DNA of 35,406 nt from an uncultured Clostridia bacterium. GTDB taxonomy: Bacteria > Bacillota > Clostridia > UBA1381. Each line of letters begins with the position of its first letter. Positions within the stretch are counted from its first letter, which is position 1. The position numbers and the translations under genes were made by a program. Where the stretch lies: contig CANQIP010000015.1 in NCBI GenBank assembly GCA_947623955.1, forward strand, positions 1 through 35,406, read 5' to 3'. The notes beneath the pieces were generated by a model that was not told where the DNA came from, searched no databases, and saw only the letters and a program-made list of their open reading frames with translations. Shown piece after piece: positions 1-12,241 of the stretch.

Positions 1-174
1 ATTTCAAACAAAAATCAAGCCAAAACGCAATATCGGCTCAGTGAGGCTCATGATGCTATTATTTCAAAAGAAATGTTCGATGCCGTACAAGCCGAAAAAG
101 CCCGGCGCAGCAATGTTGTTGTCGATGACAGTGGTAAGCAACATAGGAAAGCTAATAGATATAGCTCTAAATAA
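1..174 (+). pseudogene. Large serine recombinase fragment (interior piece)
   Basis: Reading frame 1 is open from the first base and translates to a stretch containing AHDAIISKEMFDAVQAEKA, then RRSNVVVDDSGKQHRKANRYSSK, ending at TAA (172-174). The pattern 'H.aIIs.e.Fd.VQ.E..RRS' is typical of the Recombinase domain and the start of the zinc-ribbon region of large serine recombinases of Clostridia mobile elements (TnpX-like). In intact relatives the RYSSK segment continues into a Cys-rich zinc ribbon; here it stops at once and transposase sequence of another family begins about 15 bases later. The 5' part lies outside the window, so it may be a longer gene truncated at its 3' end. It cannot make a complete recombinase. 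Family assignment rests on motif recall. Confidence 0.7.
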
Positions 175-190
175 AATGTTCCTTTTGTGC

Positions 191-460
191 AACTGGAATG
201 AACTTTCCACTATGTTCAAATACCCGCCGGAAATCCGCAAGCTGATTTATACCACAAACGCCATTGAAAATTTCAACCGCCAGTTGAGAAAGGTGACAAA
301 AACCAAGAGCGCCTTCGTTTCCGATGACGCTCTGATGAAGCTTTTGTATTTAACAACCATGCAAATCGTGGATAAATGGACGATGCCGATCCGCAACTGG
401 GGTATGATTTTAGACAATTTAATGGTCTATTTTGGAAATAGGGTGAACATTGCCCTGTAA
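191..460 (+). pseudogene. IS256-family transposase, C-terminal remnant
   Basis: Frame 2 from about 191 encodes NWNELSTMFKYPPEIRK, LIYTTNAIENFNRQLRKVTK, then SDDALMKLLYLTTMQIVDKW and TMPIRNWGMIL, ending in TAA at 458-460. The YP.EIRk.IYTTNAIE.lNRQLRKVTKtK signature and the W..PIRNWG tail mark the C-terminal third of IS256 (Transposase_mut) enzymes, including the last catalytic Glu region. Intact members are about 400 residues; only about 90 are left. The open frame extends upstream to an ATG at 41, but that part is the out-of-frame shadow of the serine recombinase fragment. The remnant cannot transpose by itself and marks past IS activity at the left edge of the AT-rich island. Confidence 0.85.
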
Positions 461-589: not shown

Positions 590-1612
590 CTATATCTTGC
601 AAAAATCACATCCTATATCTGATAATCTTTTTGTTTTTTGTATCTTTATTTCTGTTTTCAAAAGTTTATTTAAATATTTAATTCCTGCTTCATTTCCCAA
701 AACTCCTTGTGCCCCACAAAAATAACACGAATAAGCGGCCACTTTTTTTGCTACATTAAATGCTTTTTCTATTACTTTTTTTTCAATTGACTCTACGCGA
801 TATGGGTACTCTTGTAAAAAGTAATATAAAAATGAGGCGGTTAACCAATCACCTGCACCTGCATTGTCTACAATATCTTTTTCCTTTTTGACACCTATAT
901 AATTCCATGGGCTCACATTCCCATTATTTTTATATATATACTTAATCCCCTTTTCGCCAAGGGTGATAATGAATAGCTTAGTCTTGCACATACTGAAATC
1001 ATTTTTTATCTTTTCAATATAACTCTGTGGTATCCTCTCTGCAGATATTTTAACAATATCTGCATTTTTTATATTATTAAAAAGAGTATCGTAAACCCTT
1101 ATAGAATTGGGCTCATAGAAATTCCAGCCTGTATCATTATTATTAATTAACCAATTTATACCTTCTGATATACGATCATAATAAAATAAATTTTGTTGCC
1201 CCAGATGATCATAAATTTGTTTTACATTTGCAACCCGCGGCAATTTTATTTCGTTAGTTTTTTTCCCACATTTAGGGCACTTGGTGGTAAAACTGTGTTC
1301 CCCATTCCTAAGATTTTCAATAATTCTTGGTGCGCTCAAATTAAATTTATTAAAATAAAATATATCCATTCCTCTTTTTCCTAATTCCTCATTAAGCCAA
1401 TCGCCTTGCTTTAATAAATAATTCGCTTGCAAAAAAGAAACCTTCATACCTATTAAAGAAAGAATTGAAGCGACATTAGCTGCGGTCCCCCCAATAGAAA
1501 TAATATCATTTTGATTTTCTTGTTTTATTATATCTATACAAGACAACCCAGCACCCATTATTTTTATATCTTTTATATCTTTTATATCTTTTATATCTTT
1601 CATTTTTGTCAC
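590..1612 (-). CDS. PfkB-type sugar/nucleoside kinase with three CxxC pairs
   Basis: Last gene of the six-gene island operon. From the GTG at 1612 it is 340 residues. The N-terminal substrate-side signature IGGTAANVASILSLIGMKV (about 40-58) and the C-terminal DNAGAGDW (249-256, catalytic Asp255) place it in the ribokinase/PfkB family, which phosphorylates sugars or nucleosides with ATP. The substrate is not readable. Unusual are three CxxC pairs: C112/C115 in a CPKCGKK knuckle where PfkB proteins carry their lid region, C296/C299, and C335/C338 near the C-terminus (CDFCKI); they may bind zinc. The start is ambiguous: GTG at 1612 overlaps the upstream gene's stop as GTGA and has GGAG 8 bases upstream (1621-1624); ATG at 1603 has GGTGA 5 bases upstream. 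The residues just after the start are a (KDI)4 run from a 9-bp tandem repeat. It is probably translationally coupled. Confidence 0.8.
   Translation of the reverse strand: MTKMKDIKDIKDIKDIKIMGAGLSCIDIIKQENQNDIISIGGTAANVASILSLIGMKVSFLQANYLLKQGDWLNEELGKRGMDIFYFNKFNLSAPRIIENLRNGEHSFTTKCPKCGKKTNEIKLPRVANVKQIYDHLGQQNLFYYDRISEGINWLINNNDTGWNFYEPNSIRVYDTLFNNIKNADIVKISAERIPQSYIEKIKNDFSMCKTKLFIITLGEKGIKYIYKNNGNVSPWNYIGVKKEKDIVDNAGAGDWLTASFLYYFLQEYPYRVESIEKKVIEKAFNVAKKVAAYSCYFCGAQGVLGNEAGIKYLNKLLKTEIKIQKTKRLSDIGCDFCKI
1562..1600. repeat. 9-bp tandem repeat encoding (KDI)n
   Basis: Four copies of a TTTATATCT-type unit run at exact 9-bp spacing (ATATC at 1566, 1575, 1584 and 1593) just inside the 5' end of the PfkB-type kinase gene. 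On the coding strand each unit reads AAA GAT ATA (Lys-Asp-Ile). Gain or loss of a unit would keep the frame and only lengthen or shorten a charged N-terminal tail. Confidence 0.85.
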
Positions 1613-2700
1613 CAATCAAACTCCGAATTATCTAAGCATATACAACATAATTCTTCATTGTCACCATTATACGTCTGCTTTGGAGAATATCCCTTATTTT
1701 CAACAATTACTACTCCCGCCTTTATATATTCTTTTTCTAAAGATAATATTGTTAGCAGGACTCCCATATCAATTAGTTTACTTGATTGGGATGAAAATGC
1801 ATATCTAATTGATCTATTGTTATCTTTATTCAATGCTTTCTCATAATATTTTACCGTATCATACAACTTCTTGTATACGATTAATGGAAAATTCTCTGGT
1901 ACGTATATAATATTTCTTTTTTCTATATTTTGCTCTTGAAACAATATCTGCCCATAATTCCTTAATATGTTTTCACTTTTTCTTGCATTAACAGCCGGAA
2001 ATGGAACTATTGGACAAATCTCAACAGGTTTTAGGTAGTCCGCAATAATATTAAATGCCTCTTTCCCATTTATCCCTAATGCAGGCAACCAAATAGTATC
2101 ATCTCCATCAGATTCCATAGTTAAAGAAAAAGTTTTAAATCCCTGCAAATATTCTGCAGATCCTTCTACTATTATTGGGTTAATACTATCATCATATTCG
2201 CTATTCTCGCTCACAATAATATATAGTCTCTGACTTTCATTTTTTATAGTTCTTATCCATTTTATTATACTAAAGCTAACTGCTCGAGGCATTGCGCTAA
2301 TATCTATAATAATGTTCTTAAATTCACTAATATATTCTTTTTTTAAAAAATTTTTCACACTTTCCGATATTACTAAAACTCTCTTTCCATCATCATTTTT
2401 ATATGTAGGAACATTTAATGTTTTATGTATTATATCTTTACATATTTCCTCAAAACTCCGAACATTAATATTACTACGGAACTCATTATTTTTTTCATCA
2501 TTAGAGTAGCTCCTATCATTATAATCTATTAACCAGGCAGTATTGATATGTATACCATTTGTTATCAATGCTTCTATGGCATTACAAGTCCTTGGATCAA
2601 AACCTTTCCCTACTATCATCAATACTTCATCCAACTGAGATAAACACTCTATAACTTTTTTTCTACCTTTTAAGAAAAGACAATCGTTAAAATTTTCCAT
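1609..2700 (-). CDS. Unrecognised island protein with GFDPR and ISAMPR motifs
   Basis: A 363-residue soluble protein with no signal peptide or membrane segment. I do not recognise it as a named enzyme. The N-terminal part (about 1-160) looks like an alpha/beta fold: strand LMIVGKGFDPR (27-37), then AWLIDYND (55-62), then KNIIIDISAMPRAVSF (128-143). A second part (about 200-363) holds LGINGKEAF, PIVPFPAVNARKSENIL (230-246) and a C-terminal CCICLD. The acidic and basic motifs at strand ends suggest a Rossmann-like binding or catalytic domain, but that is inference. ATG at 2700 has GGAG 8 bases upstream, and the gap to the ATPase gene is 10 bp; its stop overlaps the kinase start. Constant linkage to the PRTase-like and ORC-like genes would argue for a third core subunit; I recall proteins with similar motifs beside such pairs but cannot verify it here. 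Confidence 0.8.
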   Translation of the reverse strand: MENFNDCLFLKGRKKVIECLSQLDEVLMIVGKGFDPRTCNAIEALITNGIHINTAWLIDYNDRSYSNDEKNNEFRSNINVRSFEEICKDIIHKTLNVPTYKNDDGKRVLVISESVKNFLKKEYISEFKNIIIDISAMPRAVSFSIIKWIRTIKNESQRLYIIVSENSEYDDSINPIIVEGSAEYLQGFKTFSLTMESDGDDTIWLPALGINGKEAFNIIADYLKPVEICPIVPFPAVNARKSENILRNYGQILFQEQNIEKRNIIYVPENFPLIVYKKLYDTVKYYEKALNKDNNRSIRYAFSSQSSKLIDMGVLLTILSLEKEYIKAGVVIVENKGYSPKQTYNGDNEELCCICLDNSEFDW

Positions 2701-2710
2701 TGGTTTTCTC

Positions 2711-4588
2711 CTAGTCTAATAAACTCATTTGTTCATTATTTTCTCTACACATACGCTTTAGTTGATCCATGTCACAGTGTTTCCATCCACCATATGCAAG
2801 CGGCAAATTGAAATATAAACATATCCATCTATTGAGATAAAAAACTGTCATGTCTCCAACTTCCCTCCGCTCCAAATATTTTGAAGCCAAACATTTTGCT
2901 AATATATTAATAACTTCTTTATAATTATCATTATAATTATCATTTTTTATACATGCCGACAGTACATTTTTATTAATCCCAATCCCAGTATACGAACCCC
3001 CGGCATAAGATCCTCTTCCAATATCTCTTGATTTTTGACCTAGTAACACAATGTTCTTAATGAATATTTTTATAGACTGTGTGTTACTATATCTATAATC
3101 CATATCATTCCATCGTCGTTCTGCACTTTTTCTCAAACTCGTCTCCTGTTCCTCCGCAGTAAGCCTCGCCGCTCGTCTATTTCCCAACATTTTTGCTCTA
3201 TAATCCTCAAAAATACCTGAGGCAAAAAACAAAAATTGTTCTATATTATAAGATGACAATTTTTGTAGCTTTTCAAGACCATAATAAAATGGTATTTTGC
3301 TATTATAAGCTAGATAAAACTCAATAGTATTTTTATTTTTCTCATAAAAAAGGGTCAACTCCTCAAAACTAACGCTTTCATTAAAGTCAATCTCCATTTG
3401 TCCAAAATTATCTCTATTTATTTTCACTTTAACAGTTTCATAATATAACGCTTGTCTATATATATCATTTTTTATTTTGTCAATATATTCCACAGCCTCT
3501 TTATATTTTCCGGTATCGTCATATTTTTGTATATAACTTTTTACATCTGAAATATATTTAAGTAATATATTTTTATAATCCTGTGTCTTGATATTACTGT
3601 CTATACAATCATTAAAATTTCGTACACTAGCAATCCCCGACTCTTTTATTCGCTTATTTGCAATGCGTTCTAGTATCTTATAAAATACATTTTGTTTTGA
3701 AGACCAATATGTATCTATTACAATATTAGGATTATAGTCTCTTCCTAAGCTACCATCCATAGAAATGACTTGAGTATCACGAAGTCCCTCAAGGCGTTGT
3801 CCTAACCACACTCCAGTATTGCTTTTTAACGTATATATCGCATCTGGTATTATACTCCTTTGATTCTCTGTTAGCTTGTGGAAGTCATCAAAAATTAGTA
3901 TGCTATGGGAAAAAACTTCTTCTCCATTTACTAATATATTAGATCCTTCAAACAACTTTATAGATAACAAGGTTGTGTGAACAAATGATAACTCTAAACT
4001 TTCACTATGTATACCATCAAGGTATCTGCACAATTCTTTTTCACCATTGCACGCCCATTTATATGCACATAATGCATTTTTAAAAGAATTTTCATCACTC
4101 AACATCTCATCAGGAATTTTTTTAAATGTAACATATTCCAAATCATTAATGTGCATATCCAACAAATTACATATACTCTTTAAAAAAACAATTGTCACTC
4201 TATAATTTAAGAGAGCAAACAATACCTGTTTTCTTCTACCGTTTTCAAACATTTCGTCTATAATATTATATCCTCTCGCACAAGACAACATTGCACTTAT
4301 TAGTGAAATCTTTTCATCTTTTATTACTCCTAGATTTCTCATATATTTAAGAAACTCTCTATTGTTATCATTATTTTTATCTTTTAAAAGCATGCCTAAA
4401 ACCTTTGATGAAAATGCGCGAAAAAGAGATGTTTTTCCCGCACCTGGTGTACTTGAAACATAGCTTACTTTATCCAAATTTTGCTCTTCAATAATTTCCA
4501 ATACTGTTGAATCAAATAAAGATAAATATTCCGATTCATTTTCATATTGTTCATTATTTTTAATTAAAAAAGGATTTTTCCAAATCAT
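2711..4588 (-). CDS. ORC/CDC6-like P-loop ATPase of the island operon
   Basis: 625 residues. The N-terminus has NPFLIKNNEQYENESEYLSL (5-24), then Walker A TPGAGKTS (47-54), and Walker B HSILIFDDFHKL (228-239) with two Asp (234, 235). WLGQR (261-265) may be a sensor region. A long helical middle (about 300-500) is Lys/Glu/Tyr-rich. The C-terminal FYLNRWICLYFNLPLAYGGW (583-602) looks like a winged-helix tail. The layout matches AAA-type ATPases that Aravind-type comparative work groups as ORC/CDC6-like components of predicted conflict systems; Pfam has, as I recall, a family with that name. Likely role: ATP-dependent sensor or switch acting with the PRTase-like neighbour; this is inference. It lies 6 bp after the PRTase gene and 10 bp before the next, so one transcript is expected. 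AT-rich codon use (ATA, AAA, TTA) sets it apart from the genes after 9 kb. Confidence 0.85.
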   Translation of the reverse strand: MIWKNPFLIKNNEQYENESEYLSLFDSTVLEIIEEQNLDKVSYVSSTPGAGKTSLFRAFSSKVLGMLLKDKNNDNNREFLKYMRNLGVIKDEKISLISAMLSCARGYNIIDEMFENGRRKQVLFALLNYRVTIVFLKSICNLLDMHINDLEYVTFKKIPDEMLSDENSFKNALCAYKWACNGEKELCRYLDGIHSESLELSFVHTTLLSIKLFEGSNILVNGEEVFSHSILIFDDFHKLTENQRSIIPDAIYTLKSNTGVWLGQRLEGLRDTQVISMDGSLGRDYNPNIVIDTYWSSKQNVFYKILERIANKRIKESGIASVRNFNDCIDSNIKTQDYKNILLKYISDVKSYIQKYDDTGKYKEAVEYIDKIKNDIYRQALYYETVKVKINRDNFGQMEIDFNESVSFEELTLFYEKNKNTIEFYLAYNSKIPFYYGLEKLQKLSSYNIEQFLFFASGIFEDYRAKMLGNRRAARLTAEEQETSLRKSAERRWNDMDYRYSNTQSIKIFIKNIVLLGQKSRDIGRGSYAGGSYTGIGINKNVLSACIKNDNYNDNYKEVINILAKCLASKYLERREVGDMTVFYLNRWICLYFNLPLAYGGWKHCDMDQLKRMCRENNEQMSLLD

Positions 4589-4594
4589 ATTACA

Positions 4595-5698
4595 TTATGC
4601 CTCCTTATGTCTTCTTACCCTAGGAAAAAGGGCATTATGCAAACCCGAGTACCATAAAATAGGGAATGAATTGTTAGGGGTGTTATGATAAAGAATTAGT
4701 GGAAGTGAACATCCCGAAAAGCCCCTATATGGGTATTTTGTGTCCCCCACTTTAAAATGTTTATCTACATACTTTACCTCATTCTTTTGCTTTGCTAATT
4801 CATAGCATTTCTTTAATAAGCTCTCAATATCAAACTCCTTATTCATATCTAATGGCACAATTTGTTGTAGTGTATCAACTGTCATTTTAACACTTGGTTT
4901 GTCGACAAAAAAATCCTCTACATTCTTTTTTATATGCTCTTTAGCATTATCCGTGGATACATATAATACAAGATGAATGCTAATATCGGCATTATCATAT
5001 CCTACATTTTGTAATTGCTTATAAAATTTGGGTATTTTGCCATGCCACCCATTGTCATCCTTGCGAATATAACTAAGTCCACTAGCCGAAAAATCATCTA
5101 TAAGGAAAATTTCGTGAAAAGCATTGTCTTCGTATACATGGAACTTTTGGTCAAACATACTCAAATCTTTACTTAACTCAGTTGCCATATCCTCCGCCTT
5201 ACTCTCAGAAAAGTCATAATGAACAAAAACTTGTTCGTTGCTTAAGAAAGGATTTTGTCTTCTAAAAAAATCAATATGAGCACCATCACTTAGTCCCAAA
5301 AAGAGAGCAGACCGCCTTAAAAATTTAAATACTTCTCTTTTCTTGTTAGGGTCTACTATTTTTTTATTCATACAAAATTCTTTCGTCTTTTCTAATAGAT
5401 AATCTTTTATAATAACTGGATATGCATAATCTACCAACTGTCGCATTTCCTCTTCAGAAATATATATCATTTTTTCTTTTATAAAATTATATGCCACATC
5501 TCTTTCTTCTTCTGTTTCAAATTGTCTTAACCATAGTGCTAAACTCTCAATATAGCGCATTCCATGCGTGTATTGCTGATAGTCATCATATTTAATTTCT
5601 GATATGATTTGAATGTCTTTAATCTCTTCACTTAATTTTCCAACATCCCAATGCTTCATAGCATCTTGTAATATTGATTCCGCTAACTCACTTTTCAT
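4595..5698 (-). CDS. Phosphoribosyltransferase-like protein of the island operon
   Basis: 367 residues. The core motif EIFLIDDFSASGLS (196-209) matches the PRPP-binding loop of type I phosphoribosyltransferases (hydrophobic strand, Asp-Asp, then a small/Ser-Gly-x-Ser turn). The usual T-G-x-T turn is S-G-L-S here, so PRPP binding is plausible but transferase activity is not assured. The N-terminal 130 residues are helical (SLALWLRQFETEEERDVAYN, then YISEEEMRQLVDYAYP), and the C-terminus has FSGCSLPLILYHNTPNNSFP (327-346), a signature I associate with PRTase-like proteins of predicted conflict systems encoded next to ORC/CDC6-like ATPases. It may make, break or sense a nucleotide or PRPP. ATG at 5698 follows the SIS-HAD stop by one base. 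Family membership is fairly sure; function is not. Confidence 0.8.
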   Translation of the reverse strand: MKSELAESILQDAMKHWDVGKLSEEIKDIQIISEIKYDDYQQYTHGMRYIESLALWLRQFETEEERDVAYNFIKEKMIYISEEEMRQLVDYAYPVIIKDYLLEKTKEFCMNKKIVDPNKKREVFKFLRRSALFLGLSDGAHIDFFRRQNPFLSNEQVFVHYDFSESKAEDMATELSKDLSMFDQKFHVYEDNAFHEIFLIDDFSASGLSYIRKDDNGWHGKIPKFYKQLQNVGYDNADISIHLVLYVSTDNAKEHIKKNVEDFFVDKPSVKMTVDTLQQIVPLDMNKEFDIESLLKKCYELAKQKNEVKYVDKHFKVGDTKYPYRGFSGCSLPLILYHNTPNNSFPILWYSGLHNALFPRVRRHKEA

Positions 5699-5699
5699 A

Positions 5700-7583
5700 T
5701 TATATACCCTCTATGATAAATCCCGCTTTATCTTCCATAATTATTATTTTATCTAATAAGTTTTCCGTCGCCTCTAAATTCCTCTTACCTAATGGGGCAA
5801 AATTCCAGCATCCATTTAATGATTTAGAAACCAAGTCAACACTTATTCCATAATTAGAATTTAATAATTCAAAATCATTTCCACCAACAAATCCTGAGTC
5901 TCCAATTCTCAAAAAATCTGCTTGACAAAACCCATAAAGTTCAAGAAATTTTAATATATTATTTTTACTACTATCGACTGGCACAATATCTATTGAATGT
6001 CCAGACCGTAATATTTTTATATCTGAAATTTCTTGTAAAACTTCATATATAAAATCTATTTCATTGCTATCTTCAGTAATCACTGTTAATTGATATGGAT
6101 TTTTATCTTCAATACCATCAAATTTAACATTTTCAATGCCCATTTCCTCAATTAATTCAATAATTTTATTAAATGCTGATGGTACATTTTTTATTGCCTT
6201 ATTTGGAACATCCAAATCATTTAATGTACCTATACATCCACCATTATAATATTCAATAATAACCTGATCCCAAAATCTTTTATCTATGACATTCTGCAAT
6301 TCATTTCTGACAGATTTACCCCTACCGGTAGCAATTCCAATCTTAATGTTACTTTTTAATAATTCATTTAGCTTCCGTTGTATTTTATATTCAGATTCAT
6401 AGTTATTGTTTGCATGTAATGTACCATCATAATCAAATATAATCCCTTTAAATATATGATTTGTGATTTTGTTATATACTATCCTTCCAGCTTGATAGAA
6501 AATATCAAAATTCTTTATATGCAGTCCTGTCTTGCGATATACCCCTCGCAAAACGGGATCTTTCTTGAGATTTTGCCCAAATTTGACATCTCCAAGTCGA
6601 CTGCTAATATGATACAATTTTTTACCAAATTCTTCTATTGTTGGTCTACCTGGATCAATTCCCGCAAGTTTTCCAGCAAGATTTACTATTTCAAACACAT
6701 AAGCAAAAGCCTCTAAAACACCTCTAATATTAGATTTCTCAATATATAATCTTTTTAAAGGAATCTCTCTAGGTAACAAGTTTAGTGTTTTTTCTGCTAG
6801 CTTACTATTTTCATTATCTATAAATGCAATTATTGATGTTTTTTCCATTCTTTTTGATATCCAAAAATGTCTTCCGTGAGCAAAATTGCGAAAATCAACC
6901 ATTTGGACATTACCCAGTGCAACCTCACAAAATTTTGACTCAAGATCAACTACTGCTGATTTTGTAATGCCGCTATATAAGATTATTATTGTTTCTTTTT
7001 TTAAAATGCCGTCTATATTATCATCTTCAATCTTTTTTTCAAAAATAAACTTCTTAGGTAAAATAAAAAATTCATTTTTAACTATATCAGAAAATGCCTT
7101 TGACAGAATAACAATGGCCGAAATCAACGACTCTACTGCCAAATATCCGTCTTTTAAAACGGGCATACTATATTCAAAATAATAATTGTGGATATTCTGA
7201 ACTTGTATTTTCTTTATAGGTGCATTTATATTCATACAAACAGTTAACAACCCACATGGTTCTAAAGTTGATAAATATGTATATGCATTTTTTGAATCCG
7301 AGTTTCTCCCCCTGGCAGTAAACAAAATCACAGCACTATTTTGTAATTGCTCTTTATATTCACTTAGTTCCAAAGGTGTTATGCTTTTTGCTAAAATGCC
7401 AATTCGAGTGCAAAAATATTCAACAGCTACAGCTACGGAATACGATCCACCAGAACCAACTAACAAAAAAAATTTTTCTCGATATTTTTCTAAAAACGAT
7501 GAGATCACGGTCGTATCACAATTTAATGCGCAATTATATATCATTTCTAGAGTATTTAACTCTTTCTCAAAATTTTTTCCCAT
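5700..7583 (-). CDS. SIS sugar-isomerase-like and HAD phosphatase fusion
   Basis: 627 residues in two halves. Residues 1-340 look like a double SIS domain (phosphosugar binding or isomerase): a glycine loop LLVGSGGSYSVAVAVEYF (40-57), a second Rossmann-like unit starting TIIILYSGIT (198-207), then ESKFCEVALGN and DFRNFAHGRHFW (230-241). Residues 378-627 are a Cof-type HAD phosphatase: FDYDGT (383-388, Asp384 nucleophile, Asp386 acid/base), IGIATGRGKS (415-424), Lys540 and GDSGFVGGNDFELL (561-574). Families: SIS proteins bind phosphosugars, Cof-type HADs dephosphorylate sugar phosphates or nucleotides. The fusion suggests one phosphosugar-like substrate is rearranged and dephosphorylated, or a toxic product removed. 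SD GAGGTG stands 5 bases before ATG 7583, and the gap to the NUDIX gene is 8 bp. Confidence 0.85.
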   Translation of the reverse strand: MGKNFEKELNTLEMIYNCALNCDTTVISSFLEKYREKFFLLVGSGGSYSVAVAVEYFCTRIGILAKSITPLELSEYKEQLQNSAVILFTARGRNSDSKNAYTYLSTLEPCGLLTVCMNINAPIKKIQVQNIHNYYFEYSMPVLKDGYLAVESLISAIVILSKAFSDIVKNEFFILPKKFIFEKKIEDDNIDGILKKETIIILYSGITKSAVVDLESKFCEVALGNVQMVDFRNFAHGRHFWISKRMEKTSIIAFIDNENSKLAEKTLNLLPREIPLKRLYIEKSNIRGVLEAFAYVFEIVNLAGKLAGIDPGRPTIEEFGKKLYHISSRLGDVKFGQNLKKDPVLRGVYRKTGLHIKNFDIFYQAGRIVYNKITNHIFKGIIFDYDGTLHANNNYESEYKIQRKLNELLKSNIKIGIATGRGKSVRNELQNVIDKRFWDQVIIEYYNGGCIGTLNDLDVPNKAIKNVPSAFNKIIELIEEMGIENVKFDGIEDKNPYQLTVITEDSNEIDFIYEVLQEISDIKILRSGHSIDIVPVDSSKNNILKFLELYGFCQADFLRIGDSGFVGGNDFELLNSNYGISVDLVSKSLNGCWNFAPLGKRNLEATENLLDKIIIMEDKAGFIIEGI

Positions 7584-7591
7584 TTTTCACC

Positions 7592-8050
7592 TCATATATC
7601 ATTATAAACCACAGAAGAATATCCATTCTCTTCATTCCATTCAACATACATTTCTTTACGTTGACTACTAAAAAATAATGGCAATCTATATTCCATGCCT
7701 TCTGATAACTCTAATTTCAAAATATCACTAATACTTATCCAACGTAAATCTCCTTCATCGCACATTTTAGTAATATTACCTTCAAATTCATTGCAAAAAT
7801 AGTTACTTATAATATGCCTTTTATGATTTTCAGTATTATAAAAATGCGCAAACCCCATATAAGAAATATTTTTCACTATTAATCCAGTTTCTTCAAATAT
7901 TTCTCTCTTGATGCATTCTAGCATACTTTCACCATCTTCTAAATGTCCTCCTGGAAAAGACCATCCTTTCCAACTATTCTTTCGATTTATCATTAAGACC
8001 ATATTTTTATCTACAATAGCACACATGGTTGTTAATTCTATATCATACAT
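7592..8050 (-). CDS. NUDIX (MutT-like) hydrolase, first gene of the island operon
   Basis: 152 residues. A complete Nudix box (G-x5-E-x7-REuxEExGu) starts at GHLEDGESMLECIKREIFEE and runs on into TGLIV, so the metal-binding Glu residues are present. MutT-type enzymes cleave nucleoside diphosphates linked to another moiety, such as (oxidised) dNTPs, NDP-sugars or dinucleotides; the substrate here cannot be read. Other recognisable parts are the N-terminal strand TTMCAIVDKNMVLMINRK and WSFPGGHL just before the box. As leader gene it sits behind the only clear promoter of the operon, with SD AAAGG (8063-8067) about 12 bases before ATG 8050. In context with a PRTase-like protein, PfkB-type kinase and SIS-HAD it fits a nucleotide/sugar-phosphate chemistry module. 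Confidence 0.9.
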   Translation of the reverse strand: MYDIELTTMCAIVDKNMVLMINRKNSWKGWSFPGGHLEDGESMLECIKREIFEETGLIVKNISYMGFAHFYNTENHKRHIISNYFCNEFEGNITKMCDEGDLRWISISDILKLELSEGMEYRLPLFFSSQRKEMYVEWNEENGYSSVVYNDI

Positions 8051-8082
8051 AATAAAGTTATACCTTTCTAAATCTCCCTATT

Positions 8083-8111
8083 ATTATAGCATATAAATAA
8101 AAAAAAATCAA
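8083..8111 (-). promoter_or_regulatory. Sigma-A promoter of the six-gene island operon
   Basis: On the minus strand: -35 TTGATT (8106-8111), 17-bp spacer, -10 TATAAT (8083-8088) preceded by TGC. Transcription would begin near 8076, leaving a leader of about 25 bases before the NUDIX ATG at 8050. No operator-like palindrome is obvious. Confidence 0.8.
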
Positions 8112-8285
8112 CAAATATAAAAAAAACGGTAAAAAAATAATCAACAAATTTTATAAATTCTATTATCTTATTGCAACATATATCACAAAAAAGGTTTGGG
8201 TATCCCCAATCTTGTGTCAAACCCGTTGCACATACACCGCAAACGCCGTTAAAGCAATGTATAGCCATAACAAAAAGCAACGCTC

Positions 8286-8405
8286 TTACCCCTGCATCGC
8301 TATTGTTTTAATTATATCGCTCACTCCAAGCATCGAAATAGCTATCTTCAGGACAAATACCATGAAAACGAGTGCCGTTTCCACCGCTATCATTTTCAAT
8401 ATCAA
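8286..8405 (-). CDS. Possible 39-residue hydrophobic peptide
   Basis: From a TTG at 8405 with GAGGTG 7 bases upstream, or from ATG at 8393 (35 residues), the minus strand encodes MIAVETALVFMVFVLKIAIS followed by MLGVSDIIKTIAMQG and TAA. One membrane-spanning helix is predicted by eye (about residues 4-24 of the ATG form). Its size and shape recall small holin-like or type I toxin peptides, but I recognise no family and chance cannot be excluded in AT-rich DNA. It lies upstream of the island promoter in the same direction. From 8112 to 8285 I see no further gene; a Cys-rich open frame there looks like chance. Confidence 0.3.
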   Translation of the reverse strand: MILKMIAVETALVFMVFVLKIAISMLGVSDIIKTIAMQG

Positions 8406-8462
8406 AATTCTACACCTCAACTATTGACAAAGAGCCAATTAATATTAGCAAATAATTTCATA

Positions 8463-8512
8463 GATGGGGTACTTTTAACCGTTTCCATTTTTTGATGGGG
8501 TACTTCTAACCG
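8463..8512. repeat. Two imperfect 19-bp direct repeats (GATGGGGTACTTYTAACCG)
   Basis: GATGGGGTACTTTTAACCG (8463-8481) and GATGGGGTACTTCTAACCG (8494-8512) differ at one base and start 31 bp apart. A weaker GGTGGGGAC follows at 8523. Short repeated blocks at an element end are typical of IS21-family termini, where they bind the transposase, but no IS21 genes are present; this would be a remnant end. Confidence 0.55.
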
Positions 8513-8539
8513 AAAAGTTTTAGGTGGGGACAAAAAAAA

Positions 8540-8582
8540 TTAGCCTACTTGAAAATCATCATAAAGTAGGCTAAAATTTTTC
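8540..8582. terminator. Strong hairpin with U-tract
   Basis: Arms TTAGCCTACTT (8540-8550) and AAGTAGGCTAA (8564-8574) form a perfect 11-bp stem with a 13-base loop, followed by AATTTTT. It works on paper as a rho-independent terminator on the plus strand, and A-runs on the other side make it usable on the minus strand too. Confidence 0.7.
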
Positions 8583-8594
8583 CCTGAAACCGCG

Positions 8595-8620
8595 AAAACG
8601 GCTTGAAATCAAGCCGTTTT
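8595..8620. repeat. Perfect 12-bp inverted repeat with 2-base loop
   Basis: AAAACGGCTTGA (8595-8606) and TCAAGCCGTTTT (8609-8620) form a nearly loopless palindrome 20 bp after the terminator hairpin. It ends in a short T-run and could be a second terminator or a binding or cleavage site of a lost mobile element. Between here and 8739 nothing else is recognisable. Confidence 0.6.
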
Positions 8621-8739
8621 GCGTGTATCAATATTTGAGTACATTCGTGGCTACAGATGTCCGGCTTGAATGGACGACCCTGCGGTTAATAGTCACATGC
8701 TCTGCCATAAATACTTTCGCCTCAAAGTATTTATCTATT

Positions 8740-8967
8740 CTATATAGTGAAATCACTTTTTGAAAGACGACGAATTACTTGAACTCTCCTCGTATAACCT
8801 AATAGGTTTTCTATAAGATATTTTACTATCACTTTTGCTCTATAGCACCCGTTGGTGCTTGTCCAAAAGCTGTTTGGTGTTTCCGAACCCCCATGGTTTA
8901 CATAAAGTTTAAAAAACCGAATGATTCCTTCACTGTCGGAAACTCTGTCTAAATCAAGTAATTCCAA
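8740..8967 (-). CDS. Small hypothetical protein at the island's right edge
   Basis: The open frame reaches an ATG at 9018, but a better start is TTG at 8967, with GAGGTG (8974-8979) 6 bases upstream; this gives 75 residues beginning LELLDLDRVSDSEG and containing KLYVNHGGSETPNSFWTST. It is basic and soluble, with the tail VQVIRRLSKSDFTI. I do not recognise a family. The well-placed SD is the main support; base composition is intermediate between island and chromosome. It could be a leftover accessory protein of the element that ends here, or a chance frame. Confidence 0.35.
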   Translation of the reverse strand: MELLDLDRVSDSEGIIRFFKLYVNHGGSETPNSFWTSTNGCYRAKVIVKYLIENLLGYTRRVQVIRRLSKSDFTI

Positions 8968-9013
8968 TGTTTTCACCTCACAACGCTTGTTCAAAACTAT
9001 TAGATTTTCTTGT

Positions 9014-9302
9014 GACATTAACGCTCATCACCCCGAAGGAATTGCCACATCGGTGCCGATATATTATTCGTCGGGCAGTCGGCGCAAGGCGCGGCGCAAT
9101 TATCGGGTATCTGCTGCTGCGCCCGTTCTTTAACGACACGATATTCGGCGTGCTGTTCGGCGCGATTGCGGGAATTATGATGTTCATATCGCTCGAAGAG
9201 CTACTCCCTATGGCACGGGAGTACGAAAAAAGCAAAATCACTATCATCAGCGTCGTAATCGGTATGGCGATTATCGCGCTGAGTTTGCTGCTGTTCCTGT
9301 AA
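9014..9302 (+). pseudogene. ZupT/ZIP-family zinc transporter, decayed 3' remnant
   Basis: Two frames must be joined. From 9032 one frame reads PEGIATSVPIYYSSGSRRKA; after about 9092 the next frame reads GAIIGYLLLRPFFNDTIFGV and continues through GAIAGIMMFISLEELLPMAR to TAA at 9300-9302. In intact ZIP (ZupT) proteins these are consecutive parts: the HN.PEGIAT metal-site helix, then about 15 residues (F..SF.SGLAEPV) missing here, then the last three membrane helices with the EELLP motif. The His/Asn motif before PEG is also scrambled, and everything upstream of about 9014 is absent. So the gene was truncated by the island side and has since suffered a small deletion with frameshift. Native ZIP transporters import zinc and other divalent metals. 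Confidence 0.8.
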
Positions 9303-9307
9303 TGCGA

Positions 9308-9338
9308 AACGGAGAGGTGTACCCCTCTCCGTTTTTTA
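9308..9338. terminator. Bidirectional terminator between zupT remnant and LysR gene
   Basis: Arms AACGGAGAGG (9308-9317) and CCTCTCCGTT (9324-9333) form a 10-bp stem with loop TGTACC and a T-run after it. The stop codon of the convergent LysR gene (9336-9338) lies in the tail. Confidence 0.85.
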
Positions 9339-10217
9339 TTTTTCATATTTTTCGCGCAGCCTTTGCAGAAACAGTTCAGCCGCTTTTGAAAACACCTGAT
9401 GTTTCTTCCACACAATATCGAGATGCACCTCCATGTCGGACTTTAAGGGTCTGAAGGTGAGCGTCTTTTCCTCGTTTGTGCGGATTATTTTGTCGAGACA
9501 CAGCACGTACCCCAGCCCCTCGTCAGCCATGAGAGACGCGTTGTAGAGCAGATTGTATGTCGCGACAATATTCAATTTGTCAAAATCACGCCCTATCCAT
9601 TTCGGTATGTCGCGGCTCGTAAGCGACTGGCGCGACACGATAAGCGGCACGCCGCGCAGGTCGGCGGGTTCGATGTATTCTTTGGCGGCAAGCGGACTGT
9701 CGGCGCGCATCAAAATCCCCCACTTGTCAACCGCCGGCAGCCGTATGTACTCGTATTTGCTGACGTCGGCAGGCTCGACGAAAACGCCGAAATCGAATAT
9801 CCCCTTGTCGAGCTTATCCGTAATGTCGTCGCTGTCACCGCTGAAAATATGAAAATGAATGTCGCTGTGCTCATCGTGCAGCTGCGCCGCGATACGCACA
9901 AGCATACGCATAGCGTCCGTCTCTCCGCCGCCGATGTAAATATCGCCGCCGATATGTCTTTCGCCCGACGAAAATTCAGCCGCCGTCTTGTCGGCAAGAC
10001 TTATTATTTCCTCGGCGCGTTTTTTCAGCCTCATGCCGTCCGGCGTAAGGCTCAGACGTTTGCTGCTGCGCACGATTAGCTGCGCGCCGAGTTCCTTTTC
10101 CAAATCCATAATCTGCCGCGACAGTGTGGGCTGAGTTATGTGCAGCGTGTCGGCGGCAGCCGATATGCTCATTTCCCGCGCCACGGCGAGAAAATATTTC
10201 AATACGCGGATTTCCAT
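9336..10217 (-). CDS. LysR-family transcriptional regulator
   Basis: 293 residues, the usual LysR size. The N-terminal winged helix-turn-helix is clear: MEIRVLKYFLAVAREMSISA, then AADTLHITQPTLSRQIMDLE (recognition helix about 30-40), followed by KELGAQLIVRSSKRLSLTPDG. The rest (about 90-293) is the periplasmic-binding-protein-like effector domain, with IYIGGGETDAMRMLV and FDFGVFVEP. It is divergent from the DUF362 lipoprotein gene, the standard LysR arrangement, so it probably controls that gene and itself. SD AAGGAAG lies about 7 bases before ATG 10217. The effector is unknown. Confidence 0.93.
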   Translation of the reverse strand: MEIRVLKYFLAVAREMSISAAADTLHITQPTLSRQIMDLEKELGAQLIVRSSKRLSLTPDGMRLKKRAEEIISLADKTAAEFSSGERHIGGDIYIGGGETDAMRMLVRIAAQLHDEHSDIHFHIFSGDSDDITDKLDKGIFDFGVFVEPADVSKYEYIRLPAVDKWGILMRADSPLAAKEYIEPADLRGVPLIVSRQSLTSRDIPKWIGRDFDKLNIVATYNLLYNASLMADEGLGYVLCLDKIIRTNEEKTLTFRPLKSDMEVHLDIVWKKHQVFSKAAELFLQRLREKYEK

Positions 10218-10237
10218 AAAATCACTTCCTTTTTTAT

Positions 10238-10267
10238 ATTATACTTCCCTGTTATTATGCTTGTCAA
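10238..10267 (-). promoter_or_regulatory. Promoter of the LysR gene
   Basis: Minus strand: -35 TTGACA (10262-10267), 18-bp spacer, -10 TATAAT (10238-10243). The -35 box lies inside the 17-bp palindrome at 10256-10272. Confidence 0.7.
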
Positions 10268-10272
10268 GCATA
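10256..10272. promoter_or_regulatory. 17-bp palindrome, likely LysR operator
   Basis: TATGCTTGTCAAGCATA is a perfect palindrome around a central T. It covers the -35 box of the lysR promoter and lies about 25 bp upstream of the -35 of the divergent promoter, the position expected for a LysR recognition site that autorepresses and activates the divergent gene. Contact by this regulator is inferred from position only. Confidence 0.55.
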
Positions 10273-10294
10273 TTAAGGTATTCAATATAAGTAT

Positions 10295-10323
10295 TTGATA
10301 TTTTTATATTCCCGTTATATAAT
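10295..10323 (+). promoter_or_regulatory. Promoter of the DUF362 lipoprotein gene
   Basis: -35 TTGATA (10295-10300), 17-bp spacer, -10 TATAAT (10318-10323). SD GGAGG follows 8-9 bases before ATG 10352. Confidence 0.75.
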
Positions 10324-10351
10324 AGAGTAAACAAAAAAGGAGGAATCGGCT

Positions 10352-12241
10352 ATGAAAAGGATTGCCGCGGTAATATTGATTATGATTGTGTGCCTCGTAA
10401 GCGTGTCGGCATGCGCGGCGGACGGTTTCCCAGCGCATGAGCCTTACGGCGAGGGCGTGGGTGCTATGCCCGGAAGAGTTGTATGGGCGTATGAGCCGGA
10501 CTCCGTTGACTGGGACGGAAACGGATACTGGTGGGAGCCGGACAATTTTAACGAGGATATTATGCGGAATATGGTTTCCGACTCGATCGCAACGCTCGGC
10601 GGCGCTTCGACGGCGGCGGACGGCTGGAGAGCGCTTTTTGAAAACCGCAACGAGAGAAACGGCGAAAGCGGCGGCTACAAGGCGGGCGAGAAGATAGCGA
10701 TAAAAGCCAATATAAACGGCTCGGCTGTAATGGATAACGATACCTCCGGCGAAACGAGCATGAGCTATACAAATCCGGTGCTGTTAAAGGTGCTTTTAAC
10801 TTCGCTCGTCGAGGACGCGGGAGTTAAGCCATCGGATATTACGGTCTACGACGTGTCGCGTCTGTTCCCCGATTACATGGAAAAGATGTGTACCGAGGGA
10901 ATACTTAGCGGCGTGAATTTTGTGAACCGCGATAACGGAACCGCCGATGAAATCGCGCCGATCGTGTGGTCGCATGAGTTTAGCGGTGCGGTGAATTATC
11001 TTCCGACCTGCGTTACCGAGGCGAAATATATGATCAATCTTGCGAATTTAAAGGGACACAGCTACGGAATAACGCTGTGCGGCAAAAATCACTTCGGCTC
11101 GTTCATAAACGGAAACGCGATGCGTCCACCGGAAGGGGCTAATCTGCACCAGTGGCTGACGCGCAGCGAAATGGGAATTTACAGTCCTCTCGTGGATCTA
11201 ATGGCAAACAAGCACCTCGGCGGCAAGACGGTTTTGTATATACTCGACGCGATTATCTGCGCGCCGTCGGAGGGCGCGTCGATTACGATCAGCAATTCAA
11301 AATGGCGGCAGGAGTCGTTTAACGGAGATTTCACGTCAAGCGTGTTCATGTCGCAGGATCCGGTCGCAATAGATTCGGTAGGTGCGGATTTCATTATCAA
11401 CGAGCCTGCCGTCACGGAAAACAATCATGCCGCGAGTGACGTAACGAACGAGAATTATCTGCACGAGGCGGGACTTGTTAAAAATGCGCCGTCCGGCACG
11501 GTCTATACCGACAGTTTCGGCAAAACCGTTACCAATTTGGGCGTGCATGAGCATTGGAACAACCCGACCGATAAGCAGTACAGCCGCAATCTCGGCAGGG
11601 ATGAGGGCATAGAGCTTGTAATGGCGGAGCAGTCCGTCGGCGGAAATGTAACGGCGGAGTATTATTCCGACGGTGAAAATGTTACGATTTCGGGAGTGGA
11701 CAACAGCGCAAGGCTGATTGTAGCGGAGTATAACGAGGGCGGAAGGCTCGTCGGCTGCAAAATGTATAAGCCCGAAAACGGCGTGATAACCGCGCCCGAC
11801 ACGTCCGGCACCGTAAGCGTAAAGACGTTCTTGTGGGATATGGATACGCTCGAACCGATCAACGTCACAAAAACCGATACGGAGGAGGATGTAAAAATGA
11901 ATGTGCGGATAGGAGACGCGGTATTTACCGCAACGCTTGAAGATAACGCGGCAGTCGGCGAATTTATAGAGATGATGAAGGCATCGCCTGTTACGATTGA
12001 GATGAGCGATTATTCGGGATTTGAAAAGGTGGGCTCTCTCGGCAGAAACCTTACTACAAGCAACAGCCAAATAACGACGGACGCAGGCGACATAGTGCTT
12101 TACAACGGCAATCAAATTGTCATGTTTTACGGCTCAAACTCATGGAGTTACACAAAACTCGGTCACATCGACGACTTGACGGGTTGGCGCGAGGCTCTCG
12201 GCAGCGGCGATATTACGGCTGTATTCTCGCTCGCCGAGTAA
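10352..12241 (+). CDS. Lipoprotein with DUF362 domain and C-terminal cyclophilin-like domain
   Basis: 629 residues. A basic N-terminus and hydrophobic helix end in a lipobox (Val18-Ser-Ala-Cys21), so it is probably a lipid-anchored exported protein. Residues about 90-370 match the DUF362 pattern: EKIAIKANINGS, PVLLKVLLTSLVEDAGVKPSDITVYDVSR, INLANLKGHSYGITLCGKNH and MSQDPVAIDSVGADFI; DUF362 has no settled biochemical role and is sometimes fused to ferredoxin, which is not seen here. A beta-rich linker (about 430-510) follows. Residues 516-629 (MNVRIGDAVFTATLEDN through WREALGSGDITAVF) match the cyclophilin-like fold family common in Clostridia; prolyl isomerase activity is not implied. The acetyltransferase gene follows after 29 bp. 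It is probably under the divergent LysR regulator. Confidence 0.82.
   Translation: MKRIAAVILIMIVCLVSVSACAADGFPAHEPYGEGVGAMPGRVVWAYEPDSVDWDGNGYWWEPDNFNEDIMRNMVSDSIATLGGASTAADGWRALFENRNERNGESGGYKAGEKIAIKANINGSAVMDNDTSGETSMSYTNPVLLKVLLTSLVEDAGVKPSDITVYDVSRLFPDYMEKMCTEGILSGVNFVNRDNGTADEIAPIVWSHEFSGAVNYLPTCVTEAKYMINLANLKGHSYGITLCGKNHFGSFINGNAMRPPEGANLHQWLTRSEMGIYSPLVDLMANKHLGGKTVLYILDAIICAPSEGASITISNSKWRQESFNGDFTSSVFMSQDPVAIDSVGADFIINEPAVTENNHAASDVTNENYLHEAGLVKNAPSGTVYTDSFGKTVTNLGVHEHWNNPTDKQYSRNLGRDEGIELVMAEQSVGGNVTAEYYSDGENVTISGVDNSARLIVAEYNEGGRLVGCKMYKPENGVITAPDTSGTVSVKTFLWDMDTLEPINVTKTDTEEDVKMNVRIGDAVFTATLEDNAAVGEFIEMMKASPVTIEMSDYSGFEKVGSLGRNLTTSNSQITTDAGDIVLYNGNQIVMFYGSNSWSYTKLGHIDDLTGWREALGSGDITAVFSLAE

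What the first reader, a model, noticed from the sequence alone, without database searches (positions are those of the whole stretch)
590..8111. Six-gene AT-rich operon: NUDIX, SIS-HAD, PRTase-like, ORC/CDC6-like ATPase, GFDPR protein, PfkB-type kinase
Seen: six same-strand genes with gaps of 1-10 bp or overlaps behind one promoter, in AT-rich DNA bounded by broken mobile genes. Known: PRTase-like plus ORC/CDC6-like ATPase pairs have been proposed as conflict-system cores; NUDIX, HAD, SIS and PfkB proteins handle nucleotides and phosphosugars. Inference: a defence or stress system in which the ATPase senses and the enzymes make or remove a phosphoribosyl- or sugar-nucleotide signal or toxin. 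The four-enzyme set around the core does not match any named defence system I know.
Basis: partly seen in the sequence, partly recalled or inferred. Interest (0 to 1): 0.88.

Follow-up and report, generated by a model that had tools for sequence, protein, structure and literature searches.

The report
CARF-linked phosphoribosyltransferase defence operon
A mobile six-gene bacterial operon joins a three-protein core, which in related loci sits beside DNA methylases like a restriction system without a recognised nuclease, to sugar- and nucleotide-processing enzymes; it looks like an undescribed form of anti-invader defence, but no function has been tested.

The parts
7592..8050 (-). NUDIX hydrolase, 152 aa, first gene of the operon; accessory, not conserved in relatives
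   Evidence: Pfam NUDIX 2e-21; PADLOC PDC-S07 9.3e-16; 1 of 22 loci
5700..7583 (-). SIS-HAD fusion, 627 aa: double-SIS phosphosugar isomerase/deaminase-like half plus HAD-IIB sugar phosphatase half; HAD motifs intact here; SIS2 motif RNFAHGRH where 3hba/8eol have an EF.HG glutamate
   Evidence: Hydrolase_3 2.6e-13; PDB 8eol/3hba 4.7e-8 with alignment; motifs in 16 sequences
4595..5698 (-). PRTase-CE phosphoribosyltransferase, 367 aa, PRPP-type loop LIDDFSASG, C-terminal HNTPNN motif
   Evidence: PF24390 5.1e-22; PADLOC PRTase_III-A 1.1e-15; D201, D202 and G207 invariant in 13 sequences
2711..4588 (-). ORC/CDC6-like P-loop ATPase, 625 aa, Walker A STPGAGKT, Walker B ILIFDD
   Evidence: PF24389 in 13 of 16 family members, none for the window member; P48 G49 G51 K52 D234 invariant in 16 sequences
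1609..2700 (-). tandem-CARF protein without a recognised effector domain, 363 aa (the 'GFDPR protein')
590..1615 (-). PfkB-family kinase, 341 aa (TTG start; ATG at 1603), invariant H107 and C113-P114 in an insert, and the DxxGxGD motif
   Evidence: PfkB 1.5e-9; best PDB fructokinase 5ey7 8.8e-23; invariant columns in 12 sequences
8083..8111 (-). candidate operon promoter (TTGATT, 17 nt, TGnTATAAT type)
   Evidence: first row; such matches are not above chance in number
41..460 (+). C-terminal fragment of an IS256-family transposase beside the operon
   Evidence: NF033543 7.8e-21, profile 276-336 of 338

Best explanation
A mobile defence-type operon with a restriction-like but nuclease-free layout. 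Shown: a conserved core of PRTase-CE, ORC/CDC6-like ATPase and tandem-CARF protein, in that order in all 21 loci of this type that have the trio; a sister form beside DNA methylases; and here a co-inherited SIS-HAD plus PfkB pair, with NADAR or NUDIX in some loci, and no methylase in the operon. Inferred: ATPase and CARF receptor form a sensor that detects invading nucleic acid or an infection-made nucleotide and switches on the PRTase. The PRTase is the effector: it uses PRPP to make a phosphoribosylated product (a nucleotide-like toxin or a ribosylated nucleic acid) and drains PRPP. In the sister form DNA methylation marks self; in the window form the sugar-phosphate and nucleotide enzymes keep the product low in healthy cells and clear it afterwards.
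For: Core and order. SIS-HAD only with the core: all 17 plasmid records with at least 80% of it are among the 19 matched by the PRTase; one further record matches by its HAD part only. Two co-inherited blocks: trio distances r 0.97-0.98, SIS-HAD/PfkB 0.94, between blocks 0.77-0.84 (15 loci). CARF fold. Methylase beside the core in 12 of 13 sister loci and in none of the window-type operons; Pfam checks, among them a type I specificity subunit plus methylase plus core in L103. Catalytic motifs conserved in PRTase, HAD and PfkB. Precedent for PRTase as defence effector: DprA/PRTase (passages of PMC9122126; PMC11878078) and type III retrons (passages of PMC12548924). Mobility: 8 of 19 records typed conjugative; integrase or TniB/TniQ genes beside L037, L039, L040, L046, L047, L051.
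Against: No phage data. The PRTase product and the CARF ligand are unknown; the PRTase model was poor (pLDDT 64.7) and found no PDB match at E 0.001 or better. Plain Foldseek on the CARF model put transporter tails first. SIS-HAD and PfkB look like sugar-phosphate enzymes with no direct tie to nucleic acids. Five sister loci also carry ThyX and two dUTPase, which this model does not explain. PfkB is missing in 2 of the 20 loci with SIS-HAD (L042, L057). Methylase absence was tested with my own profiles on fetched flanks only.
Confidence: 0.4

Rival explanations
1. Signal model: the PRTase is a synthetase. It makes a phosphoribosylated nucleotide that the tandem-CARF protein binds; CARF and ATPase together are the executioner or restriction arm, and NUDIX, NADAR, HAD, PfkB and SIS tune or destroy the signal.
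For: The CARF fold is a known cyclic-nucleotide receptor and has no recognised effector domain here (Can1 passages of PMC6981274). No Cas10 palm domain was found in the host genome and no cyclase among the six genes, so the PRTase is the only nucleotide-forming enzyme recognised in the operon.
Against: The core has no recognisable executioner besides the ATPase. Defence PRTases in the papers seen are described as effectors. CARF ligands known so far are cyclic oligonucleotides (recalled), which a PRTase would not make.
Confidence: 0.25
2. Modification model: the PRTase, fed by SIS-HAD and PfkB sugar chemistry, modifies host DNA or RNA bases with a sugar-phosphate group; NADAR edits it; the core then restricts unmodified invaders.
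For: SIS-HAD/PfkB stand where the sister form has a DNA methylase; NADAR proteins are described as ribosyl N-glycosidases (passages of PMC9503650).
Against: The PRTase is also present in the methylase form, so it is not the swapped modifier. No glycosyltransferase or DNA-specificity domain was recognised among the six proteins.
Confidence: 0.12
3. Type III CRISPR ancillary module: the CARF protein answers cyclic oligoadenylate from a Cas10 elsewhere.
For: PADLOC names CARF6 and PRTase_III-A come from CRISPR neighbourhood lists (origin recalled).
Against: No Cas10 palm domain in the host genome (genome 87.6% complete) and no cas gene among the annotated features of the plasmid flanks fetched (those tables are incomplete).
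Confidence: 0.05
4. Plain metabolism: a mobile sugar-phosphate or nucleoside-use or detoxification operon.
For: Three of six proteins are sugar or nucleotide enzymes, and PfkB is closest to fructokinases.
Against: No transporter in the conserved set; a CARF protein and an ORC-type ATPase are part of it; the same core sits in methylase loci; SIS-HAD was found only with the core.
Confidence: 0.12

Closest known systems
PRTase-CE (PF24390) / ORC-CDC6-like (PF24389) / CARF6 (Pfam and PADLOC families)
   Same: All three families recognised in window-type loci and in sister loci
   Different: Window form is a distant branch: its profiles find the L059 trio at 1e-8 to 1e-10 and in L060 only the ATPase, 2.9e-7; it has SIS-HAD, PfkB and NADAR or NUDIX instead of a methylase
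Can1, type III CRISPR ancillary nuclease
   Different: No nuclease domain recognised, no CRISPR; partner genes encode a PRTase and an ATPase
ShosTA-like DprA/PRTase systems and type III retrons (PRTase plus winged helix)
   Same: PRTase-like protein as described or proposed effector of phage defence (passages)
   Different: Partners are CARF and ORC-type ATPase, not DprA or a reverse transcriptase; relation of the PRTases themselves not compared
BREX and type I restriction-modification
   Same: An ORC/Cdc6-clade ATPase with a DNA methylase is part of BREX (passages of PMC12839542); L103 has specificity subunit plus methylase plus core
   Different: No PglZ or HsdR among the genes tested; PRTase and CARF instead; no methylase in the window form
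MADS (methylation-associated defence; recalled)
   Same: Two sister-locus proteins hit PADLOC mad models: L059 ATPase mad8 2.8e-4, L060 methylase mad2 1.1e-14
   Different: Weak or generic matches; no other mad gene among the proteins listed
Ter stress/defence system
   Same: PRTases and HAD phosphatases proposed to make a nucleoside-like signal (passage of PMC7824862)
   Different: No TerB/TerD-type domain among the six proteins

Membership tests
CARF superfamily | CARF Rossmann fold and sequence-profile match | tested here: met
CARF superfamily | binding of a cyclic oligonucleotide | not testable with these tools
   needs protein
Type III CRISPR ancillary protein | Cas10 in the same genome | tested here: not met
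   0 matches to PF22335 in the own genome, which is 87.6% complete
CBASS | CD-NTase cyclase in the operon | tested here: not met
   none among the six proteins in Pfam, NCBIfam, PADLOC
Restriction-modification | DNA methylase in the operon | tested here: not met
   window form none; met in 12 of 13 sister loci
Restriction-modification | nuclease in the operon | tested here: not met
   none among the six window proteins; sister loci checked only for the proteins sent
PRTase-CE / ORC-CDC6-like system | PF24390 protein | tested here: met
   79.4 bits, cut-off 27
PRTase-CE / ORC-CDC6-like system | PF24389 protein | tested here: inconclusive
   window protein no hit; 13 of 16 family members hit; own genome 0 matches
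ShosTA | DprA-like partner | tested here: not met
   no such domain among the six proteins
Ter system | TerD/TerB proteins | tested here: not met
   none among the six proteins
Anti-phage defence system | protection of a host against phage | not testable with these tools
   needs phage challenge

The most novel reading that the evidence does not exclude
A restriction system whose weapon is phosphoribosylation instead of cutting: the ORC-type ATPase scans DNA, the CARF subunit gates it, and the PRTase attaches phosphoribose from PRPP to bases of invading nucleic acid. Self is spared by methylation in the sister form and, in the window form, by enzymes that strip the mark (NADAR glycosidase where present) and recycle the sugar phosphate (HAD, SIS, PfkB, NUDIX).
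Probability: 0.12. Interest if true: 0.92.

Novelty: new variant of a known kind. Interest (0 to 1): 0.75.

Why it matters
It ties three protein families that so far carry little more than names to one testable system, shows a CARF protein in an operon without recognised CRISPR or cyclase genes, and offers a natural comparison: the same core with a DNA methylase or with a sugar-phosphate enzyme pair. Finding the PRTase product would show whether PRPP chemistry is a further currency of bacterial immunity beside cyclic oligonucleotides and NAD derivatives. The sister form may be common in the clinic: its ATPase matched 157 plasmid records, 130 of them Klebsiella, although only one of those 130 was read (trio plus methylase).

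Tried and rejected
Structure of the PRTase: modelled from five sequences (pLDDT 64.7); no PDB match at E 0.001 or better, so its assignment rests on sequence profiles and the PRPP-type loop. Plain Foldseek on the CARF model gave misleading top rows; the VIA second look was clear. No PDB relative by sequence for the CARF or PRTase profiles at E up to 1. The ATPase profile in IMG/VR found nothing, though the ATPase is present beside the other genes there. The window PRTase has no match in 50,697 phage records.

L003 (Phycisphaerales) was dropped: no PADLOC hit at 1e-5 and no hit to my profiles. L050 (Streptomyces) was dropped as another kind of locus; L049 has the PRTase alone and is kept as a row of the table. 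Only 3 and 8 of 398 genomes pass the curated cut-offs for PF24390 and PF24389; the weaker matches there were not pursued.

CRISPR origin rejected. NUDIX as core part rejected. NADAR in the host genome: none. Literature: searches showed, in their listings and the passages I opened, no paper on this combination. The 2020 CARF classification and two other papers I asked for are not held, and a legend in PMC13092281 names a PRTase in a validated defence system whose make-up I could not see; so 'not in print' is not claimed. I ran no control for defence-island enrichment; neighbours such as TIR, SIR2, caspase, NACHT and dGTPase genes are anecdotal.

Full report
Observation. The operon's DNA is 29-31% GC against 45-56% for the rest of the contig beyond 9,000, with an IS256-type transposase fragment on its left. 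The window is one whole contig of a 2.13-Mb, 56-contig genome, 87.6% complete, so what lies beyond the left end is unknown. The promoter-like site at 8111-8083 is well placed, but such matches are not above chance in number.

Conservation. Protein searches of 72,556 plasmid records found the CARF protein in 17, the ATPase in 13 and the PRTase in 19 records, at 19-39% identity. I fetched 18 of the 19 PRTase records and hold four IMG/VR contigs. Of 22 loci tabulated (window, 17 plasmid loci, 4 viral contigs; Streptomyces L050 left out), 22 have the PRTase, 21 the ATPase, 21 the CARF protein, 20 SIS-HAD, 19 PfkB, 10 NADAR, 6 an HTH gene and 1 (the window) this NUDIX. SIS-HAD is missing from L049, which has the PRTase alone, and from L053, whose contig starts at the PRTase; PfkB is missing from L042, L049 and L057. 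The trio runs PRTase-ATPase-CARF in all 21; SIS-HAD and PfkB lie before, after or around it. L045 is broken into several frames and L038's second PRTase is split. L035 and L038 carry second core copies. The SIS-HAD search matched 18 records; 17 hold at least 80% of the query, all among the PRTase records, and the other matches by its HAD part. All 13 PfkB matches lie on those records too. None of the seven NUDIX matches does. Distance matrices over 15 loci correlate at 0.97-0.98 within the trio, 0.94 between SIS-HAD and PfkB and 0.77-0.84 between the two blocks; at most 1 of 2,000 permutations reached the observed value. So there are two co-inherited blocks. The form is rare: of 391 genomes sampled from the host's class only the host's own has the CARF protein, and the PRTase matches none of 50,697 phage records.

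The sister form. PF24390 in the host's phylum led to L059 and L060; their ATPases led to plasmids and an Acinetobacter phage record, of which I fetched nine stretches, and a CARF alignment led to two IMG/VR contigs, L102 and L103. These 13 loci (L059, L060, L093-L103) are the sister set. CARF6 models match the CARF protein in L059, L060 and L093-L101; PF24390 was confirmed in L059, L060, L093 and L099 and PF24389 in L059, L060 and L101, the others by my profiles. A DNA methylase lies next to the core in 12 of 13; the exception is L101, which has no PRTase hit and a metallophosphatase. My methylase profiles were built from 11 of these loci, so those matches are partly by construction; Pfam independently finds DNA methylase families in 10, L100 has only the broader MTS family, and L099's split methylase is seen by profile only. 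ThyX is present in five (L059, L097, L098, L099, L103) and dUTPase in two (L096 by annotation; L100 by Pfam). L103 adds a type I specificity subunit. My profiles find no methylase in any window-type operon; two loci have one some kilobases away on the other strand (weak in L052; with an HsdS match in L057), probably separate systems. Profile comparison links the two CARF groups (hhalign E 5.5e-8 and 6.5e-9).

Mechanism. The layout is that of a restriction system in which an ATPase-CARF-PRTase core stands where a nuclease would be expected. I infer that the PRTase is the effector because PRTase-like proteins are described or proposed as effectors in DprA/PRTase systems and type III retrons (passages of PMC9122126, and PMC12548924). 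The PRPP-type loop is invariant. The CARF fold points to a nucleotide-type ligand; with no Cas10 match in the genome and no cyclase recognised in the operon, the ligand may be a product of the PRTase or of infection. The HAD motifs are intact in the window protein (motif IV departs in L041), while the SIS2 motif has N, Q or S where 3hba/8eol have Glu before the HG pair, so its chemistry may differ. SIS-HAD, PfkB and NADAR or NUDIX act, by their families, on sugar phosphates, ribosyl adducts and nucleoside diphosphates, which fits clearance of a phosphoribosyl product. ThyX and dUTPase in the sister form hint at a link to pyrimidine deoxynucleotides that I cannot explain.

Against. Nothing here tests phage defence. 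The PRTase model failed as a structural check. Flanking defence-like genes (RES, caspase, TIR, SIR2, dGTPase, NACHT) were not counted against a control. Plasmid gene tables are incomplete. Papers were seen as listings or passages, not in full, and the CARF classification I wanted is not held.

Verdict. A real, mobile, conserved operon; an undescribed variant, as far as nine library searches show, of the PRTase-CE/ORC-CDC6-like type, now with a tandem-CARF subunit recognised and a restriction-like sister form. Defence class about 0.75, proposed mechanism 0.4.

Noticed in passing
window 1548-1608: Tandem 9-bp repeats (TTTTATATC) encode a KDI repeat at the N-terminus of PfkB; changes in copy number would keep the frame.
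   Followed up: no
window 8463-8512: Two 19-bp direct repeats (GATGGGGTACTTYTAACCG) 31 bp apart, resembling insertion-sequence end repeats (recalled likeness), between the operon and the higher-GC region.
   Followed up: no
L035 14351-17113 and L038 1-4085 with 8001-12134: Second copies of the core beside the same SIS-HAD/PfkB/NADAR set: PRTase and ATPase seen in L035 (cut by the locus end), whole trio in L038, as if two cores share one accessory block.
   Followed up: partly
L095: The sister-form ATPase matches 130 Klebsiella plasmid records; those listed are 34-67 kb. The one fetched, typed conjugative, has the trio plus methylase.
   Followed up: partly
L103 323-7270: Type I specificity subunit, DNA methylase, PRTase, ATPase, CARF and ThyX in a row on an IMG/VR contig.
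   Followed up: yes
L101 1-9089: 7-cyano-7-deazaguanine synthase, restriction endonuclease and anti-phage dGTPase annotated just before a metallophosphatase-ATPase-CARF set without a PRTase hit.
   Followed up: no
L044 16070-17098 and L096 2119-4218: A caspase-family gene and a NACHT ATPase lie beside two of the cores.
   Followed up: no
L100 4293-9966: dUTPase, core trio and methylase beside a tRNA-Val gene in a record filed as an Acinetobacter phage.
   Followed up: no
L036, L038, L041, L044: NADAR is encoded on the strand opposite to the operon, divergent from a neighbouring HTH gene on the operon strand, as if regulated apart from the core.
   Followed up: no
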